11,175 nt of DNA from assembly GCA_023647555.1 (NCBI GenBank), contig JALRLY010000211.1, forward strand, positions 1 to 11,175, written 5' to 3'. This DNA is from Pancytospora philotis (taxonomy: Eukaryota; Microsporidia). Position numbers and translations under genes: made by a program. The notes below the pieces were generated by a model that was not told the DNA's origin, made no database searches, and was given only the letters and a program-made list of their open reading frames with translations. Shown in pieces: positions 114 to 10,970 of the stretch (the first letter of the stretch is position 1; each line of letters opens with the position of its first letter).

Positions 114-1172
114 ATGAGAGATTGGCGCAGAGATATAGATCATAGCTCGCATTGTAGACTGTACGGCGGGTTGGAGGACCGCTATCGCTACGCCATAGCT
201 CCTCGATCATTCTCTGTTTCAGGGACCGAGGCGGCCCTCAGCAACAGCAAAACTGCTTCGTACCGTGAGCATCTGTTGTCACTGTATATGCAGCCTCTGT
301 TGTATCTGTTCTCTGGCTGGCACCACTCGGCGATGCGCGCCCCTTATTATAATTGCGTGGCCTGCCTGCCCTTTATCGGACCGATGTCTCGTGCGCTGCT
401 TTTCCCTACGCTCGGAGTGATCGCCGACCTGCTCGCGAACGAGATGCTGACGCGCATGTACAAATCGAGCAACGCCCCAGATATCATCTACCTGCTCTTC
501 CTCCCCAGCTTCCTCTTCTTCGCGAGCCAGGCCTTCATGCTGCTCTCGCGTGATTGGTTCATAAGCACGAACGATCTGATTGCTGGGCTGGCGTGCGCCA
601 GCCTGTACGTATACCCCTTCGTGTCCTCGCAGACGCTCGACTACGTCTACTCCACGGAGCTGCGGCTCGCGATCGACGCCGCCGGCGTGGTGTTCGCGTC
701 CGCGTTGATAGAGATCCTCGTTGGGCGGAAGAGCAAGGTCGAGCGCAACATCATATGCATGGCGGTGCTGCTCACCGCGCTGTCTGCCCTGTACATCCCC
801 AGTGAGCTCTTCACCCACCGCACCTTTGGGATGACGATCGTAACACTCGTGCTGCGCGTCTGCGTCTACATCTTCGGCCACATCCTCGTGATCGCGTACT
901 CGCCCGCCAAAATTTTGTATATCGGCAGCACTCTCGTGCTCATGTACGCGATCCTGCACTTCAGCTGGCAGATTCCGTACGAGACCGCCCGCCAGCTTAA
1001 GTACCTCGAAGCGAATTCCGGCGCGGCCTCGCTGCTCTTCGGCCTGCTCCTCCTGGATGTAGTTTTCAAATACATGACGCTGGCGCAGGTGGACCTGGAC
1101 ATAATTTACGTATTCCTGTGCATGCAGCTGGTCCTCTACCTCATCCTGAAAGGCCTGAGGGTTCTCTCGTAG
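114..1172 (+). CDS. Polytopic membrane protein, probable GPI-transamidase subunit PIG-U/GAB1-like
   Basis: The predicted protein has 352 residues. After a hydrophilic N-terminal stretch of about 55 residues there are roughly nine hydrophobic segments reaching the C-terminus. The order and spacing of several blocks resemble PIG-U/GAB1, the multi-pass ER subunit of the complex that attaches GPI anchors: a PLLYLF/GWHHS block, an LPFIGP...VIADLL block like PIG-U's PLIIYLF...MITDAL, a FLPSFLF...NDLIAG block, and a C-terminal LLFGLLLLDVVFKY...DIIYVFLCMQ block like PIG-U's VLGPILHHLWIY...FFYAITLTFN. It is shorter than human PIG-U (435) and yeast Gab1 (394). No catalytic motif is expected. Frame-open GTG 105 precedes ATG 114, the first Met, which I chose. 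Met 288 is an alternative that would remove the hydrophilic leader. The comparison is from remembered family patterns, so another polytopic ER protein remains possible. Confidence 0.5.
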   Translation: MRDWRRDIDHSSHCRLYGGLEDRYRYAIAPRSFSVSGTEAALSNSKTASYREHLLSLYMQPLLYLFSGWHHSAMRAPYYNCVACLPFIGPMSRALLFPTLGVIADLLANEMLTRMYKSSNAPDIIYLLFLPSFLFFASQAFMLLSRDWFISTNDLIAGLACASLYVYPFVSSQTLDYVYSTELRLAIDAAGVVFASALIEILVGRKSKVERNIICMAVLLTALSALYIPSELFTHRTFGMTIVTLVLRVCVYIFGHILVIAYSPAKILYIGSTLVLMYAILHFSWQIPYETARQLKYLEANSGAASLLFGLLLLDVVFKYMTLAQVDLDIIYVFLCMQLVLYLILKGLRVLS

Positions 1173-2046: not shown

Positions 2047-2988
2047 ATGAACATCGCCCTCGACTTCCTCAAGCACTGCTGCAAGCTGATAATATGCGGC
2101 ATATACCCCATGCTCGACCTGTACGGCTATTTCGTGTTCTGCGGGATCTTCTGCTTCGAGGGCTCGCTTGTCAATACCGCGGGCGCCACCATCTTCTTCG
2201 CCATATACTGCTTCATCACAATGATCAAGATCGTGCTCTACCTCGAGCTCTTCATCCTCAAGGGCCAGACCACGGCGGAGTTCTTCCCGCAGATCGACGA
2301 GAGCAACGACGCGCGCCCGCTCGACAACATCAACCCGTTCGTCGCCGAGCAGCTGATGAACAAGACCTCGGCCTTCACGCACCTCTGCAAACACTGCAAG
2401 ACGTACAAGCCGCCGCGCACGCACCACTGCTCCGTGCTGAACCGCTGCTACCTCAAGTACGACCACTACAACTACATCTTCGATAGCGCCATCGGGTTCC
2501 ACAACTACAAGACGTACTACCAGCTGCTCGTGGTCAGCATGGTGGCCTCGCTCTTTTTCATCATCGTGATCGCGCTCGAGGTGGCGATCCCGCCCAATCC
2601 AGCGCGCGTCACCACGGTGAACTACATTGTGAGCATCGCGCTCTTCTTTATATCTGCCTGTTACAACGGCCAGCAGCTTCTGCTCCATACGCGGCTGATC
2701 TGCAACAATGAGACCTCTGTCGAGCACAGCGCCATCAACGCCTACCAGCGAGGCGACCGCAGCTGGGCGCACACCTTCCAGGAGGGCCCGATATGCTCCG
2801 ACAGCCCGCTCACCGACCGGCATAAGCTCAATCCCTACTACCTGGGCTGCCGGAACAACTGGCGCGAGGTGTTCGGGCCGAGTCCGATTGGCTGGTTCAC
2901 GACCACGTTCACCTCGCTCGGCTCCGGCGCGGCGTTTAAGACGAATGATGCGCAGGGCAACGAAGATATTATCTACGATATTCTATAG
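2047..2988 (+). CDS. DHHC-family four-pass membrane protein with degenerate (DHYN) active site
   Basis: The 313-residue protein has the architecture of protein S-acyltransferases. Two hydrophobic segments (about 5-35 and 40-72) are followed by a cytosolic Cys-rich domain (114-153) and two more hydrophobic segments (about 158-180 and 192-212). A TTxE-type motif (NETSVE, 221-226) and a PaCCT-like block (NPYYLGCRNNWREVFG, 262-277) come next. The Cys-rich domain begins canonically with C114, C117, K121-P-P-R124, H126-H127-C128 and C134. The catalytic tetrapeptide, however, reads D139-H140-Y141-N142, so the acyl-accepting Cys is Asn. Two further consensus Cys are L131 and A148. DHYC is tolerated in some yeast enzymes, but loss of the Cys is not. 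It therefore looks like a pseudo-acyltransferase, perhaps a scaffold or partner subunit. ATG 2047 places the first membrane segment normally. No CCC motif precedes it. Confidence 0.88.
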   Translation: MNIALDFLKHCCKLIICGIYPMLDLYGYFVFCGIFCFEGSLVNTAGATIFFAIYCFITMIKIVLYLELFILKGQTTAEFFPQIDESNDARPLDNINPFVAEQLMNKTSAFTHLCKHCKTYKPPRTHHCSVLNRCYLKYDHYNYIFDSAIGFHNYKTYYQLLVVSMVASLFFIIVIALEVAIPPNPARVTTVNYIVSIALFFISACYNGQQLLLHTRLICNNETSVEHSAINAYQRGDRSWAHTFQEGPICSDSPLTDRHKLNPYYLGCRNNWREVFGPSPIGWFTTTFTSLGSGAAFKTNDAQGNEDIIYDIL

Positions 2989-3756: not shown

Positions 3757-6273
3757 TTATTTATTCTTCTTGACAAGGACATCCTCTACATACGCCGTGC
3801 AGATGGGGTCCTCCGCCTCTGCGCGCTCGCAGCTGTTCAGAACGATCGGCAGGTTGTGCACGATGGACGCGCTGATCCGGTTGGGCTTCCCGACAAGGCC
3901 GACCGTCTCGGCCGGCGTGCCTACCCTGACGATGCCCTCGTAGCCCGACACGTACTTCGGGCTGATGGCCCCGGTGATGAGGTACATCAGATAAGGATGC
4001 TCCTTCAGCATGCCCGACTCGAGGAAGACAAATACCGTAGAGATCAGGCTGGCCGCGCTCTTGTGCAGAATGAGCTGGTTGTCGTAGCAAAGAGGCGAGA
4101 GGGTGAAGAGCCCCTTGCCGAGGTTCACCAGGCCCTGCGCAACGATGAGGGCCAGCGAGGCCTTGGAGTCGTTGTATACGTTGCAGAAGTTCGAATCGAG
4201 GATCTTGAGGACCCTGGAGGAGCAAGAGCCCGCACCGACCAGTCCCAGCCCAATCAGCGAGTTGATGCTAGCTTCGCCGCTGTTCACAGAGCGCTCGAGG
4301 ATGTCCACCACATCTACCTTAGGATTGGACGGGTTGAGGATCCCCAGGCAAATGGGCACAATATTCTTGAGATGCGGTGAGTCCAGGAGCAGCGAGGAGG
4401 TTGAGATCCGCTCCAGCAGGTGGGACGACATGGAATCGCCCATGCATACGATGCACGAGGCAATAAGACCGAGCGACTCGAGCAATGCATCGATCTCGCC
4501 CACGAAGGACATTGACAGTATTTTGTCCACGACAGAGACATTCGACGAGCCGATGTGCATGAAGCCGAGCGCAAGGACCTGGGCGTGCCGGTCGAGCCGC
4601 TTGAAAAGCCCAGCACCGACGCTGTCAGATGCAGCGGCCGAAGCATCGGTGGCCTGCGCATCAACGGTGCTGCTGCCAAGCGCATCATCCACCGCAACAT
4701 CGAGTCTGAGGTTGTAGAAGAAAAGAGAAAGGCCGAGGATTGCAAAGTTGCTGAAGGGCGTCTCCTTGCAAAGCTGCTCGTAGACATCCAGACAGGACGC
4801 AAGGATCTCCATATCGCCAGGGAATACGGCACCGAGCACGTAGATCGCAAAGTGGCCCACATTGTTATCAGCAATGGAAAGCAGCGGGAACACCAAATCG
4901 TAGATCTCCTGATCGCCCGTCCCAGTGTAGAGCACGGCAATGCCGAGCAGCGCAGCAAGGATCTCCCTGCTGTCGCCGGAGTGGACAAAAATCGACAGCA
5001 GATTGAGGATAGAGCCATCGGCATCGCGCTGCCTGCAAGAGGCCAGCGCAAGCGCAAGGACAGTTGCTATGTCGGGCTGGTTGCTGATCTGCTCGGCATA
5101 CGCACCGTAGATGAACGGCAGATTGAACGCAGAGATCAGCCCGGCCGATGCCACCGTGGCAATGCTCTTGTTTATTCTCAGCTGCTCGCAATATTCCTTT
5201 TTGATCTTGAAATCACCGTCCTGTGGGAAGAACACGGGATCGCGGCAGTACGCAAAGTGCACAAAGGCGTTCGCCATCGCAAGCACATCGATCCGGTCCT
5301 TGTTCAGGCCCTTGAACATGTACTCGAGCTTCTTCGGCTGCTCCACCTCCAGCGCGCTCGCCACGCCGCTGAACACCTCGTGCATGTGGCCGTTGCTGAG
5401 TATGCGCTCCTCGTCGTCGTCGCCGCGGTAGTAGATGGAGTTCCGCGCAAGGATGTAAAGCAGTTGCTGCTTCATCTGCGGATCCTCCATCCCGCGCGCA
5501 TAGGCCTTGGCCTCCTCTATCCGCCCGCTCCGGATCAGCGCCACCAGGCACTGGCTCGGATCGTACGCCTTTATGCGCAGCACCAGATCGGTCAGCTCGT
5601 AGAACCGCGACAGCTCCTCCAAGTACAGAATGATCCGCTGGCGGTTGTCATCATCGGCCAGCTCCACAAGCAGGTCAAAATACTGCATGCGCGCGGGGCG
5701 CGCCGGCGCAGACTGCACGGGGCTGGCGCCCTCCTTCTCCGCCGACTCCTCCGACGCGGTTATCGACTTGATAAGCTGCGCGAAGCGCACAACAGCATTC
5801 GTGCAGACAGGCGGGGCGCGGGAAACCTCGATGAGAAAATCAATGGCCTCCACCTCGCTGTTGCACCCGACCAGGAAGCGCACGATCGGCTCCACGAGCA
5901 CCTCGTACTCGACCGCCGCCTCCTTCCCTGTCTCCACATCGAGAATATTCGACACGAGCTTCAGAACGTACTGGTGGCCCCACTCAGAAAGCGCGGTCAC
6001 GTTACCGCAGAGCCGGTGCTGCAGACACTCAATGCTGTCATCCAGCACGCACATCGCAGACAGCAGATCGTGCAGGTAGCTTTTGTTGTCGCCCTCGACC
6101 ACCTCGAGGCAGCGCCGGATCTCGGTCTCCGCATCGAGCAGCTCCTGCGTCTTCGCAGCGACCTTGCCCTGCGTGGACTTGATCTCCTTGTGCAGCAGCT
6201 CGAGCGCCATGCGCTGCATCTCGGGGTCGCTCTCCCGGAGCCGCGCTATAATCGTGCTAAGATCGGCCTCCAT
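3757..6273 (-). CDS. RPN1: 26S proteasome regulatory subunit RPN1 (PSMD2)
   Basis: The 838-residue protein is the large non-ATPase base subunit of the 19S particle. This subunit docks ubiquitin receptors and substrates and contacts the Rpt ATPase ring. An N-terminal helical region (about 1-340, with KGLNKDRIDVLAMANAFVHF near its end) leads into the proteasome/cyclosome repeat toroid (about 350-740). Repeat cores are visible as ALLGIAVLYTGTGDQ, FAIYVLGAVFPGD, ALGFMHIGSSN and LIGLGLVGAGSCSSRVLKIL, the last very close to the conserved GLGLxGAGTNNARL. The block GKGLFTLSPLCYDNQL and the C-terminal tail with GxPAETVGLVGKP...NCERAE match the RPN1 C-terminal domain. It is somewhat shorter than human (908) and yeast (993) RPN1, a usual microsporidian trimming. 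The ATG lies 4 nt downstream of a CCC motif. The gene ends AAG-AAT-AAA-TAA and converges on the small + strand gene. An acidic-poor, Ala/Ser-rich insert sits at about 535-555. Confidence 0.95.
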   Translation of the reverse strand: MEADLSTIIARLRESDPEMQRMALELLHKEIKSTQGKVAAKTQELLDAETEIRRCLEVVEGDNKSYLHDLLSAMCVLDDSIECLQHRLCGNVTALSEWGHQYVLKLVSNILDVETGKEAAVEYEVLVEPIVRFLVGCNSEVEAIDFLIEVSRAPPVCTNAVVRFAQLIKSITASEESAEKEGASPVQSAPARPARMQYFDLLVELADDDNRQRIILYLEELSRFYELTDLVLRIKAYDPSQCLVALIRSGRIEEAKAYARGMEDPQMKQQLLYILARNSIYYRGDDDEERILSNGHMHEVFSGVASALEVEQPKKLEYMFKGLNKDRIDVLAMANAFVHFAYCRDPVFFPQDGDFKIKKEYCEQLRINKSIATVASAGLISAFNLPFIYGAYAEQISNQPDIATVLALALASCRQRDADGSILNLLSIFVHSGDSREILAALLGIAVLYTGTGDQEIYDLVFPLLSIADNNVGHFAIYVLGAVFPGDMEILASCLDVYEQLCKETPFSNFAILGLSLFFYNLRLDVAVDDALGSSTVDAQATDASAAASDSVGAGLFKRLDRHAQVLALGFMHIGSSNVSVVDKILSMSFVGEIDALLESLGLIASCIVCMGDSMSSHLLERISTSSLLLDSPHLKNIVPICLGILNPSNPKVDVVDILERSVNSGEASINSLIGLGLVGAGSCSSRVLKILDSNFCNVYNDSKASLALIVAQGLVNLGKGLFTLSPLCYDNQLILHKSAASLISTVFVFLESGMLKEHPYLMYLITGAISPKYVSGYEGIVRVGTPAETVGLVGKPNRISASIVHNLPIVLNSCERAEAEDPICTAYVEDVLVKKNK
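3758..3763 (-). terminator. AATAAA poly(A) signal overlapping the RPN1 stop codon
   Basis: On the minus strand the gene ends AAT-AAA-TAA, so the hexamer overlaps the last two sense codons of RPN1. The hexamer is followed directly by the stop. This mirrors the convergent neighbour and implies an extremely short 3' untranslated region, or a second signal further on that I do not see. Confidence 0.5.
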
Positions 6274-6916: not shown

Positions 6917-8509
6917 CTATTGTACGTCCTCGCCATACTCCTTCAGCGACTCTTTATACGCGCTCAGCAGCTTATGGATCAGATGGTCGAAGGGCGCCTT
7001 GCGCGAGCATATGATGCTCTCAAAAAATGTGTAGTCCACGGCCTTGTACATGTACTCCGACTTGCCGTCCTCGCCGAAGTTCTTGATGTGCATCAGCATG
7101 CCGGGCGTGTACAGCTTGGTGTACCTGTCGGTGGACTTGAGGTGCTGCATGATCTCCTCGATGTTCTTGTACAGCACCATCTTGTCCATGAAGAAGATAT
7201 TGAGACTGCTGATGGAAATGCACAGGTACTTCAGCTCGAGCACGGAGCCGAAGCAGAGCCGCGGCACGAGGTCGTGGCCGTAGTTGTAGATCTTGATGCC
7301 CGGGAACTCCTTGCTGGCGATGGACGCGGACACGACCGGCGGGCAGCTGAAGGCCGTCACGCTGGCGCACGCGGTCCACTCCGGCTCGCGCTCCAGCATG
7401 ATCAGGTACACCAGCACAGCCACGGCCGCGCCGAGCGAGTGCCCGGCGAGCACCAGCTGCTTCACGCCCCGTCTGTCCATCTCGCTCCGCAGCACGCCCC
7501 AGTGCTGGTCCATGAAGGCCGTGCCCAGGTCGCGGATCCCGCGGTGCGCGTACCCGTCCTGGAAGTGCGCGTAGTCGCAGCTGAGGTCGTGGATGGTCTC
7601 GATCCCCGACGTCGTGCCCTTGAAGCTGACGACGAGCCGCCCCTTCGAGAAGAACGCGATGTACGAGATGGAGCTGTCGTCCCCGCGGAAATCCTCGAAG
7701 AGATCCGCCTCCTCGATGTCGAGCCGGTCCAGAATCGCCTTCTTCCTGTTGTCGCGGATGTTCACCGTGTCGCGCCGCTTCTCGAGGCCCCACGTGAAGA
7801 GCGAGTTGGCGAACGCCGCGGCCGCGTACTGCAGCATCTCCACGGCGCTCTCAAGGTCCGCGGCCGCGAGCTTCCCGTAGCTCGCCCTGCAGAACGGCTG
7901 CCCGCAGCTCGCGCCGTCGCAGTCGGGGATCCGGCACTCGCCGTAGATGTAGTTGTAGTAGTGCTCGGCCGAGACGTGCCCGAAGATCCAGCGCATGTGG
8001 CATGTGAAGGTCCCGCGCTGCGTCGTCTGCAGCAGGTTGTACACAATGCGGTACATGTGCGCGGTCTTCTGCGCAAACAGGAACGCGAAGAGGTCCTTCT
8101 TGGGCTTCTTGTACGGCACGATCCCCGTGGCCGGATTGCTCTTGCCGAAAATGCCGAAGCTGCCCGTGAGCTCCCCGACCTTCGGCGGCTCCCGCTCGTA
8201 GCAGTCGGCGCGGTCCAGATACTCGGCCGGCCTGAGCTCGAACGTCTCGGTCGTCCGCGCGCCGTCCTCCGTCTCGAGGAACATCCGCAGCGGGACCTTG
8301 GCCACCCCCACGCACTTCTGCTTCTCGTTGCGCAGGATCACGAACAGCTCGTTAAAAAGCATATCGTGGAGATCGGGCAGCAGCAGATCGAAGGAATGCT
8401 CGAAGGGGAACGCAGCGCCGTTGTAGGAGTAGTGCAAGGACACGGGCTCCTCGGGCTGCGTCGACAGCGAGAACTCCGCCCGGAGTATTCGGCCCGTGTT
8501 GTACCCCAT
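6917..8509 (-). CDS. Class 3 lipase, diacylglycerol-lipase-like, with N-terminal C2-like domain
   Basis: The 530-residue protein is an alpha/beta hydrolase of the lipase_3 family, expected to cleave di- or triacylglycerols. The nucleophile elbow is GHSLGAAVAVLV with Ser358. The acid is Asp413 in YGHDLVPRL, a DAGL-like motif, and the base is His509 or His512 near the C-terminus. Upstream, RLVVSFKGTTSGIETIHDLSCD matches the strand and oxyanion region of DAG lipases. Residues about 1-85 resemble the second half of a C2 domain (FDLLLPDLHDML...LFVILRN...VGVAKVPL), suggesting membrane recruitment. There are no membrane segments or signal peptide, unlike animal DAGLs. Between the two domains is a Cys cluster, C192-x4-C-x4-C-x4-C207. 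The frame opens earlier (TTG 8542), but the first ATG is 8509, with CCCC 2 nt before it. It follows the B56 gene on the same strand after 248 bp. Confidence 0.88.
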   Translation of the reverse strand: MGYNTGRILRAEFSLSTQPEEPVSLHYSYNGAAFPFEHSFDLLLPDLHDMLFNELFVILRNEKQKCVGVAKVPLRMFLETEDGARTTETFELRPAEYLDRADCYEREPPKVGELTGSFGIFGKSNPATGIVPYKKPKKDLFAFLFAQKTAHMYRIVYNLLQTTQRGTFTCHMRWIFGHVSAEHYYNYIYGECRIPDCDGASCGQPFCRASYGKLAAADLESAVEMLQYAAAAFANSLFTWGLEKRRDTVNIRDNRKKAILDRLDIEEADLFEDFRGDDSSISYIAFFSKGRLVVSFKGTTSGIETIHDLSCDYAHFQDGYAHRGIRDLGTAFMDQHWGVLRSEMDRRGVKQLVLAGHSLGAAVAVLVYLIMLEREPEWTACASVTAFSCPPVVSASIASKEFPGIKIYNYGHDLVPRLCFGSVLELKYLCISISSLNIFFMDKMVLYKNIEEIMQHLKSTDRYTKLYTPGMLMHIKNFGEDGKSEYMYKAVDYTFFESIICSRKAPFDHLIHKLLSAYKESLKEYGEDVQ

Positions 8510-8757: not shown

Positions 8758-9879
8758 TTACTTTGAATGCATGGTATCAGAGGCCTTGCCCTGCTTTTCC
8801 TGGTTGTAGCGGACCAGGCAGCTTTCGAAGAGCTCGCAGTTCTCGTTCATAACCATCCGCAGCGCCGCCAACGCCTGGCAGCGCTGCTCCGCACGCCAGA
8901 ACTTGCGGCCCAGATTGTACAGGCTGGCGAAGCAGCGCGGGAGGATCCCTGGGAGATGCGCTAGGATATAGGATCTGGAGGCCGGGCTCTCTAGCACGAA
9001 TATGGCGCGCTCGATAACTACGTGATTCGCGCTCGAAAGAGCTGTTTGCAACAGCGCGGCCACCAGCGCCTCAATGCCGGTTCCTTGTTTGAGCTGCCCA
9101 TGCAGCTCGATGATTTTGGCGGTCTCGGCGAGGGCCCAGCACTGCGCAGGTGTCCCGAGAAGCAGAAACCGCTTGTTGAAATGGCGCAGCGTACCGATGA
9201 GGCATTCGGGATCCCTCCGGGAGTAAAGAAGCACCGCAACGGCAGCAGAAGGAGCGCTGATGGCGAAGATGACCGGAAGGACGAACTGGCTGTAGAAGTC
9301 GCTGCCCTCGCTGCCGGGCTTCAAGGCTGAGGTCAGAATGAATACAAACCTGGCCAGATGCACGCCGGTTCCCTGGAAATTATCTCTAACTGCAGCGTGT
9401 GCGCGCTCGTTCTTCTCTCTGAGCGATACGAGTTCATTTCTAGCGATGCTCAGCAGTGCTGTGTGTGTCTGCGGGTACCTGCGGCAGATCGCCTCGATGA
9501 CCGCAAGCGCAGCATCGGCACGTTCGTGCGCATCACTTGCCAAAAGAGACACCAGTGCTGCTAATACGCGTTCGTCGAAGCGCTGCGTGAAGTCATTGTA
9601 GCTCCAGCGCATTTGCATGATTGCTGTGCTGGTATCTGCGAGTACACGGACCAGGCGGTGGGTTGAAAATGCACCGATACCATTCCGTATGCTAATAGCG
9701 CCGGAGCTTACCTCTACTTCTTCTGCTACGCCAATTTTCTTCTTCGCAGCAGAGTTAAGGTCATCTGATCCAGCCCGGCATAGATACTCGATAGCCTCTT
9801 GCTCATCAAGCGCGTGGCTTATGCTTATGGTATCGGTATCAGGGAACCCCGGCGCTTTGCCTCGTCTGTCGGAGAGCAT
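8758..9879 (-). CDS. RTS1: Protein phosphatase 2A regulatory subunit, B56 (B') family, divergent
   Basis: The 373-residue, mostly helical protein matches the HEAT-like repeat fold of B56 subunits, which bind the PP2A A-C core and select substrates. The best matching part is the C-terminal half. FVLPVIFAIS corresponds to the B56 VLLPLHK block, and LGTPAQCWALAETAKIIEL to the repeat before the VxERAL motif. Residues 288-292 (VIERA) begin VIERAIFVLESPASRSYI, followed by LPGILPRCFASLYNLGRKFWRAEQR. That is close to the B56 [20 protein letters not shown] signature. The end, MNENCELFESCLVRYNQEK, matches the MNQKLFDDCTQQF region. It is shorter than usual (about 450-750), lacking long N- and C-terminal extensions. 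The region where B56 proteins carry HRIYGKF reads IEAICRRY (128-135). The ATG follows CCCC by 3 nt. The symbol is the fungal B56 name and assumes a single family member. Confidence 0.75.
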   Translation of the reverse strand: MLSDRRGKAPGFPDTDTISISHALDEQEAIEYLCRAGSDDLNSAAKKKIGVAEEVEVSSGAISIRNGIGAFSTHRLVRVLADTSTAIMQMRWSYNDFTQRFDERVLAALVSLLASDAHERADAALAVIEAICRRYPQTHTALLSIARNELVSLREKNERAHAAVRDNFQGTGVHLARFVFILTSALKPGSEGSDFYSQFVLPVIFAISAPSAAVAVLLYSRRDPECLIGTLRHFNKRFLLLGTPAQCWALAETAKIIELHGQLKQGTGIEALVAALLQTALSSANHVVIERAIFVLESPASRSYILAHLPGILPRCFASLYNLGRKFWRAEQRCQALAALRMVMNENCELFESCLVRYNQEKQGKASDTMHSK

Positions 9880-10616: not shown

Positions 10617-10970
10617 ATGCCTACGAGCAAAGAAACAATTAACAGCGACCAGCCCGGGGACGCGCCGGTGGACATGTGCCAAGCGAAGATGATGAAGATC
10701 GTCGCCAAGCGCAAGCTGATATCGGAGCCGGTCCAGCCGGTGAAGCAGAGCAAGATCGTGAAGGGCCACCAGCCGAACCCCGAGAAGTGCTCCTTCTGCG
10801 ACAAGAAGCTCAAGTTCACGAGCGCGTTCATGTGCCGCTGCGAGAACTTCTACTGCAATAGACACCGGTTCTTCGACCAGCACAACTGCACCTTCGACTA
10901 CAAGACGGAGGCCAGGAACAAGCTCAAGCAGGACAACCCGAAGGTTGTCGCGCGGAAGCTCGGCGAGTAG
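10617..10970 (+). CDS. AN1-type zinc-finger protein (ZFAND family)
   Basis: The 117-residue protein ends in a complete AN1 finger: C58-x2-C61-x11-C73-x-C75-x4-C80-x2-H83-x5-H89-x-C91, which binds two zinc ions. The family tail FDYKTEARNKLKQDNPKVVARKL follows (typical FDYK...GR..L.K.NP.V.A.KL). ZFAND5/6-type proteins usually pair this finger with an N-terminal A20 finger that binds ubiquitin. Here residues 1-50 are short, lysine-rich and have only C21, so the A20 finger is absent. The family is linked to stress responses and proteasome-bound substrate handling; a role with the proteasome here is inference. The start is supported by the TATA/CCCC block, and a poly(A) signal follows at 11005. 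Confidence 0.92.
   Translation: MPTSKETINSDQPGDAPVDMCQAKMMKIVAKRKLISEPVQPVKQSKIVKGHQPNPEKCSFCDKKLKFTSAFMCRCENFYCNRHRFFDQHNCTFDYKTEARNKLKQDNPKVVARKLGE

What the first reader, a model, noticed from the sequence alone, without database searches (positions are those of the whole stretch)
2455..2510. DHHC protein with the catalytic cysteine and second zinc site lost (DHYN)
The sequence shows D139-H140-Y141-N142 where DHHC is expected, L131 and A148 where two further consensus Cys are expected, and intact C114, C117, H127 and C134. Family knowledge says the last Cys of DHHC carries the acyl group and that the domain folds around two zinc sites. The retained residues are those of one zinc site, while the lost ones are the catalytic Cys and the other site. 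The TTxE-type and PaCCT-like motifs are still well kept, so the protein is under constraint. I infer a pseudo-acyltransferase with a structural, partner or lipid-binding role.
Basis: partly seen in the sequence, partly recalled or inferred. Interest (0 to 1): 0.75.

Follow-up and report, generated by a model that had tools for sequence, protein, structure and literature searches.

The report
Palmitoyltransferase-like protein lacking catalytic cysteine
A microsporidian parasite carries an intact, conserved membrane protein of the protein-palmitoylating enzyme family whose active-site cysteine and second zinc site are gone, and relatives have lost the same cysteine more than once, which suggests the protein has a job beyond the usual chemistry.

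Summary
ORF 2047-2988 (+, 313 aa) is a DHHC-family protein with a predicted four-helix fold (Pfam E 9.5e-21; nearest solved relative human DHHC20). It reads DHYN for DHHC and lacks three of four second-zinc ligands (L131, Y141, A148); all four first-zinc ligands remain. Among 47 orthologues two separate histories appear. (1) C131, with varying other second-zinc ligands, is lost in one 10-row clade, of which 7 keep the catalytic Cys. (2) The catalytic Cys is absent in 6 of 47: Asn in the window protein, P0002 and P0014; Ser in P0043, P0044 and P0052. That is four changes on the best tree; two separate losses are firm. P0014, P0043 and P0044 keep all second-zinc ligands. The Asp-His dyad stays in all six. 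The assembly holds three other DHHC genes, all canonical. Fly GABPI (DHHS, reported without transferase activity, a glycosyltransferase activator) is a precedent for a Cys-less member; active yeast DHYC enzymes are precedents for the Tyr. Most likely this is an acyl-CoA-binding pseudo-acyltransferase working as pilot or presenter; Cys-independent direct transfer is the main rival. New variant of a known kind.

The parts
2047..2988 (+). ORF of 313 aa, DHHC-family membrane protein (ZDHHC2/15/20-like) with DHYN motif
   Evidence: ORF; Pfam PF01529 E 9.5e-21; best solved relatives DHHC20; orthologues
2386..2448 (+). First zinc site, ligands C114, C117, H127, C134 retained (assigned by position against DHHC20)
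   Evidence: codons; all four kept in 46 of 47 orthologues
2428..2430 (+). C128, the one remaining second-zinc ligand
   Evidence: lost in 5 of the 10 rows of the zinc-2-less clade
2437..2439 (+). L131 in place of a second-zinc Cys
   Evidence: C131 lost in 11 of 47: the 10 rows of one clade plus P0054
2461..2472 (+). D139-H140-Y141-N142 in place of DHHC: dyad kept, second-zinc His replaced by Tyr, catalytic Cys replaced by Asn
   Evidence: comparison
2488..2490 (+). A148 in place of a second-zinc Cys
2707..2724 (+). NETSVE (221-226), TTxE-type motif
   Evidence: N221, E222, T223, E226 invariant in the 42 rows
2857..2877 (+). PaCCT-like core N271-W272-x-x-V275-F276-G277
   Evidence: aligned with NWRQVFG of DHHC20; N271, W272, F276 and G277 in at least 90% of the 42 rows

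Best explanation
This is a DHHC-family membrane protein with a predicted four-helix fold, orthologous to one ZDHHC2/15/20-like gene of microsporidia, that can no longer form the usual acyl-enzyme thioester because the catalytic Cys is Asn. It most likely keeps an acyl-CoA-binding cavity and Asp-His pocket but works without the ping-pong chemistry, as a pilot, chaperone or substrate presenter for a partner membrane protein, while canonical DHHC paralogues carry out acylation. The second zinc site was lost earlier, in the ancestor of a clade, and is probably replaced by packing of Tyr141 and a small residue at 148. Shown: the sequence changes, their distribution, constraint, canonical paralogues. 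Predicted: the fold. Inferred: lack of transferase activity, acyl-CoA binding, partner role, order and direction of the changes.
Against: D139-H140 and K121, R124, H126 are kept in all six Cys-less orthologues, more than a pure scaffold would need. Seven of ten members of the same clade keep the Cys, so a purely non-catalytic role is not ancestral. P0001 keeps 30 of 32 columns invariant in canonical rows (0.94, canonical minimum 0.97) and shows more unique changes than P0003. Its model is less confident than that of the canonical orthologue P0035. No partner, localisation or expression data.
Confidence: 0.5

Rival explanations
1. A working S-acyltransferase with a different route: the Asp-His dyad activates the substrate thiol, which attacks bound acyl-CoA directly, without an acyl-enzyme. 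The Cys is then dispensable, which would explain repeated loss.
For: D139-H140 kept in 6 of 6 Cys-less orthologues, and K121, R124, H126 too. [quoted passage not shown] original paper not held). Erf2 with the first His mutated still autoacylates but cannot transfer, so that His may activate the substrate (PMC8059564, section 7 read).
Against: The Cys-to-Ser mutant of DHHC3 showed no activity (PMC9332573, passage), and the AkrA Cys-to-Ser construct did not rescue (PMC4825924, passage). GABPI keeps the DHH part with no reported activity, so dyad conservation is not proof of catalysis. [quoted passage not shown]
Confidence: 0.28
2. A surrogate nucleophile: C128, freed from the lost second zinc site, takes over as acyl carrier.
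For: Both P0001 and P0002 keep C128 while Cys at 131 and 148 is lost; in P0004, P0005, P0007 and P0012 C128 is lost and C142 kept. Nearness of C128 to the active site is inferred from the DHHC20 zinc-2 ligand set (recalled).
Against: P0052 lacks both C128 and C142. P0014, P0043 and P0044 keep all second-zinc ligands, so C128 is presumably not free there. P0003, P0034 and P0037 keep both. Distances could not be measured here.
Confidence: 0.08
3. Relaxed selection: the gene is decaying and the lost residues are early steps.
For: More unique changes than P0003 (40 to 21, p 0.020; with a second outgroup 40 to 23, p 0.043); P0002 likewise with one outgroup (41 to 23, p 0.033) but not with the second (43 to 31, p 0.20); 13 uncorrected tests. 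Two of 32 invariant columns changed. Cys-rich domain pLDDT lower than in P0035.
Against: Intact full-length ORF, GC3 0.88, conserved columns kept in both P0001 and P0002 over long branches, not significantly faster than P0004, P0005, P0007, P0012 or P0034. Lower pLDDT is not confined to the Cys-rich domain: residues 241-260 differ more.
Confidence: 0.1
4. Sequencing or assembly error.
For: No read data were available.
Against: Four separate codons are affected, and P0002 shares N142 and lacks Cys at 131 and 148.
Confidence: 0.02

Closest known systems
Human DHHC20 / zebrafish DHHC15 (ZDHHC2/15/20 subfamily)
   Same: Predicted four-helix fold, Cys-rich domain, TTxE and PaCCT segments; best sequence and fold matches.
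   Different: DHHC20 has two zinc sites and the catalytic Cys; here one set of ligands and Asn.
Drosophila GABPI (CG17257)
   Same: DHHC-family protein whose catalytic Cys is naturally replaced (Ser); described as non-enzymatic and as activator, pilot or presenter (passages and section).
   Different: Six-pass as described. Its sequence was not compared here, and no protein so named was listed. Whether the window protein has a partner is unknown.
Yeast Akr1, Akr2, Pfa5 (DHYC)
   Same: Tyr in place of the second His, as in 7 of the 10 zinc-2-less rows (P0052 has Phe; P0002 and P0005 keep His). CRD cysteines are missing from some DHHC enzymes of other species.
   Different: They keep the catalytic Cys and are active.
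Yeast Swf1 and Pfa4 with the catalytic Cys mutated
   Same: Reported to keep part of their activity without the Cys (review passage).
   Different: Laboratory mutants, Cys to Arg; not compared with the window protein here.

Membership tests
DHHC domain family (Pfam PF01529) | Profile match above the curated cut-off | tested here: met
   74.7 bits against 28.7
DHHC domain family (Pfam PF01529) | Four-helix membrane fold with Cys-rich domain between helices 2 and 3 | tested here: met
Canonical two-zinc Cys-rich domain (not required of every active member: some lack CRD cysteines) | Ligands of both zinc sites | tested here: not met
   Site 1 ligands kept; site 2 keeps only C128. Zinc content itself was not testable
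Active DHHC S-acyltransferase (ping-pong) | Catalytic Cys of DHHC | tested here: not met
   N142
Active DHHC S-acyltransferase (ping-pong) | Asp-His dyad, TTxE and PaCCT segments | tested here: met
   D139-H140, NETSVE and NWREVFG kept; second Thr of TTxE is Ser
Active DHHC S-acyltransferase (ping-pong) | Autoacylation and transfer activity | not testable with these tools
   needs biochemistry
GABPI-like non-enzymatic DHHC protein | Catalytic Cys replaced in a conserved full-length protein | tested here: met
GABPI-like non-enzymatic DHHC protein | Partner membrane protein whose activity or transport it supports | not testable with these tools
   no interaction data
GABPI-like non-enzymatic DHHC protein | Common descent with GABPI itself | not tested
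   GABPI sequence was not compared

The most novel reading that the evidence does not exclude
Natural Cys-independent S-acyltransferases: in this microsporidian orthologue group the Asp-His dyad activates the substrate thiol for direct attack on bound acyl-CoA, so the catalytic Cys became dispensable and was lost repeatedly, in the window's clade on top of a one-zinc form of the domain.
Probability: 0.27. Interest if true: 0.8.

Novelty: new variant of a known kind. Interest (0 to 1): 0.52.

Why it matters
In the held papers that I saw, the case for DHHC enzymes working without the motif Cys rests on laboratory mutants. Here is a natural series in one orthologue group: both ligand sets with Cys, one set with Cys, both sets without Cys, one set without Cys. 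It separates the structural role of the second zinc from catalysis and makes a Cys-independent or non-enzymatic DHHC role directly testable, in a group known (general knowledge) for small, reduced gene sets.

Tried and rejected
Rejected: one linked loss of zinc 2 and Cys (separates them). A private error in this assembly (N142 shared by P0002). A canonical copy of the same orthologue elsewhere in the assembly: the family search found four DHHC loci (counts there are lower bounds and the completeness of the assembly is not given); the other three are canonical but at 23-26% identity to the window protein over their best aligned stretches.

Led nowhere or incomplete: dN/dS was not computed, as the nearest orthologue is at 55% protein identity and I had no DNA for the relatives. 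No zinc-bound modelling tool; I had no model coordinates for distances. The NCBIfam scan of three window proteins gave no match. Acyl-protein thioesterase PF02230 gave no match in the own genome. An Erf4-like candidate scored 27.6 bits, under the cut-off 29.3; I read its locus and went no further. One-clade tests: the three Asn rows as one clade were not rejected (p-AU 0.11), nor P0001, P0002 and P0052 (p-AU 0.40). So two separate losses are firm: P0043/P0044, which sit with P0039 at 98/94 inside a 100/97 branch of 8 rows, against the others; four is the best-tree count. Tree counts do not show direction; loss rather than gain is inferred because the motif Cys is the family norm. The Zn2-less 10 rows have support 89/78 in the 47-row tree (not starred) and are one side of a 96/87 branch in the 42-row tree. 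P0052 and P0057 sit on long branches.

Literature: ten searches. Judged by titles and abstract starts, none listed a paper on microsporidian DHHC proteins without the Cys; I did not read the 17 papers or the 3. This covers only the held open library and those terms. Papers seen: sections PMC8059564 section 7 and PMC4192757 section 6; passages of PMC8107437, PMC9332573, PMC4825924, PMC6258472, PMC9374236, PMC9105814, PMC8331233 and PMC3796536; term look-ups without a hit in PMC5359973, PMC9739150 and PMC13411175. Rana 2018, Lee 2022, Gonzalez Montoro 2015 and Gottlieb 2015 were not held.

Rows left out before counting: of 25 proteins, P0016-P0025 (10, at E 3.6e-14 or weaker against 1.4e-68 or better for the 15 kept); of 59, P0016, P0017, P0019-P0021 and P0058-P0064 (12, at E 9.2e-27 or weaker against 1.5e-62 or better for the 47 kept). 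Of those 12 I fetched 8 (P0016, P0017, P0019, P0020, P0021, P0058, P0061, P0063) and all 8 read DHHC; the other 4 were not read. All 42 proteins were used. Nine of the 47 carry a species name (all microsporidia); the rest are placed there by similarity.

Full report
What was checked. The window ORF 2047-2988 on the plus strand codes for 313 residues and matches Pfam DHHC with 74.7 bits (cut-off 28.7). The eight distinct solved sequences matched at E up to 1 are all DHHC proteins, with DHHC20 best. The division of ligands into zinc site 1 (C114, C117, H127, C134) and site 2 (C128, 131, 141, 148) follows DHHC20 by alignment and my recollection of its structure paper, which is not held; the held review gives two zincs, each with three Cys and one His.

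Relatives. Three protein searches gave 47 proteins that stand apart by score from the other DHHC proteins listed; nine carry species names and all nine are microsporidia (for example Encephalitozoon cuniculi, Pancytospora epiphaga, Enteropsectra breve). The table covers all 47. First-zinc ligands are complete in 46 of 47 (P0054 has lost C134). Second-zinc ligands are complete in 36 of 47. The catalytic Cys is kept in 41 of 47. The six without it are P0001 (the window, DHYN), P0002 (DHHN), P0014 (DHHN), P0043 and P0044 (DHHS) and P0052 (DHFS). D139 is kept in 46 and H140 in 47 of 47; K121 and R124 in 47 and H126 in 46 of 47; the exception at D139 and H126 is P0057, which keeps the Cys. That K121, R124 and H126 contact CoA is recalled; the held paper says only that a basic patch of the Cys-rich domain binds the CoA phosphates (PMC9105814, passage).

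Two separate histories. On a tree built without columns 128, 131, 141, 142 and 148, ten rows that have lost C131 form one side of a branch (support 89/78 with 47 rows; 96/87 with 42 rows). Seven of these ten keep the catalytic Cys, six as DHYC and one (P0005) as DHHC. The state of the catalytic residue needs four changes on the best tree. P0014, P0043 and P0044 lack the Cys with second-zinc ligands complete. A single clade of all six Cys-less rows is rejected (p-AU 2.8e-5), but P0014 with P0001 and P0002 is not rejected (p 0.11), nor P0052 with them (p 0.40). Two independent losses are therefore firm and four are the best estimate. P0052 and P0057 have long branches. The tree count cannot show direction; loss is inferred.

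Constraint. Among columns conserved in at least 90% of the 32 canonical rows, P0001 keeps 55 of 61 (0.90); canonical rows left out one at a time range from 0.84 to 1.00, median 0.98. Among columns invariant in the canonical rows it keeps 30 of 32 (0.94), below the canonical minimum of 0.97. P0001 and P0002 agree at 45 of 51 columns conserved elsewhere and at 120 of 250 variable ones; for P0001 and the Cys-keeping P0003 the numbers are 48 of 51 and 109 of 250. Relative-rate counts show P0001 with more unique changes than P0003 (40 to 21, p 0.020; with another outgroup 40 to 23, p 0.043) but not significantly more than P0004, P0005, P0007, P0012 or P0034. P0002 exceeds P0003 with one outgroup (p 0.033) and not with the other (p 0.20). 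P0014, P0043 and P0044 show no excess; P0052 clearly does (52 to 20 against P0012) (13 tests uncorrected). GC at third positions is 0.88 against 0.43 in the upstream intergenic stretch. I read this as a functional gene with mildly eased constraint; dN/dS could not be done.

The rest of the genome. The own assembly (3.68 Mb, 83 contigs, completeness not given) has four DHHC loci in this search. The other three have complete canonical motifs as read from their ORFs and share 23-26% identity with the window protein over their best aligned stretches. Ordinary ping-pong acylation can thus be carried out by them; that is inference.

Mechanism. The best reading is an acyl-CoA-binding pseudo-acyltransferase with a pilot or presenter role. 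The nearest precedent is Drosophila GABPI: Cys replaced by Ser, reported without palmitoyltransferase activity and required by a glycosyltransferase, possibly a substrate presenter. The rival is transfer without an acyl-enzyme: Swf1 and Pfa4 keep partial activity when the Cys is Arg, and in Erf2 the first His is needed for transfer rather than for autoacylation. Against it, the Cys-to-Ser mutant of DHHC3 showed no activity and that of AkrA did not rescue a deletion. Retention of the dyad in all six Cys-less rows fits both readings, since GABPI also keeps the DHH part. A surrogate role for C128 is possible only for P0001 and P0002 among the six, and P0052 speaks against it as a general rule. 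Repeated loss in a gene that is otherwise held fairly constant suggests a function separable from the Cys that also exists in the canonical orthologues; this is inference.

Novelty. Cys-less DHHC proteins (GABPI) and DHYC enzymes are known singly. In the searches listed under Tried and rejected I found no report of an orthologue group with repeated natural Cys loss, of a clade with one set of zinc ligands and the Cys mostly kept, or of Asn at that place; those searches cover only the open library and were judged by listings. I file it as a new variant of a known kind.

Noticed in passing
P0054 (protein), compared: An orthologue 85% identical to the canonical Anncaliia algerae protein P0045 has lost C131 and the first-zinc ligand C134 while keeping DHHC; either real or an error in that source.
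   Followed up: no
P0057 (protein), compared: Divergent orthologue with SHHC (Asp of the dyad lost) and H126 replaced by Phe, but the Cys kept: the reverse of the window case.
   Followed up: no
P0043 and P0044: Two related orthologues, in the same 8-row branch as the Vairimorpha necatrix protein P0032, carry natural DHHS with a complete set of zinc ligands.
   Followed up: partly
window 114-1172 +: 352-aa ORF, by eye rich in membrane helices, with no match in Pfam (E up to 0.1), NCBIfam or solved structures.
   Followed up: partly
L005 (G000:C61:26302-26571, minus): Erf4-like candidate just under the family cut-off (27.6 against 29.3 bits), a possible partner subunit for a DHHC protein of this genome.
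   Followed up: partly
window 3757-6273 -, 6917-8509 -, 8758-9879 -, 10617-10970 +: Neighbouring genes by Pfam: proteasome Rpn1/Rpn2-type subunit, class 3 lipase, B56-type phosphatase subunit, AN1 zinc finger.
   Followed up: no
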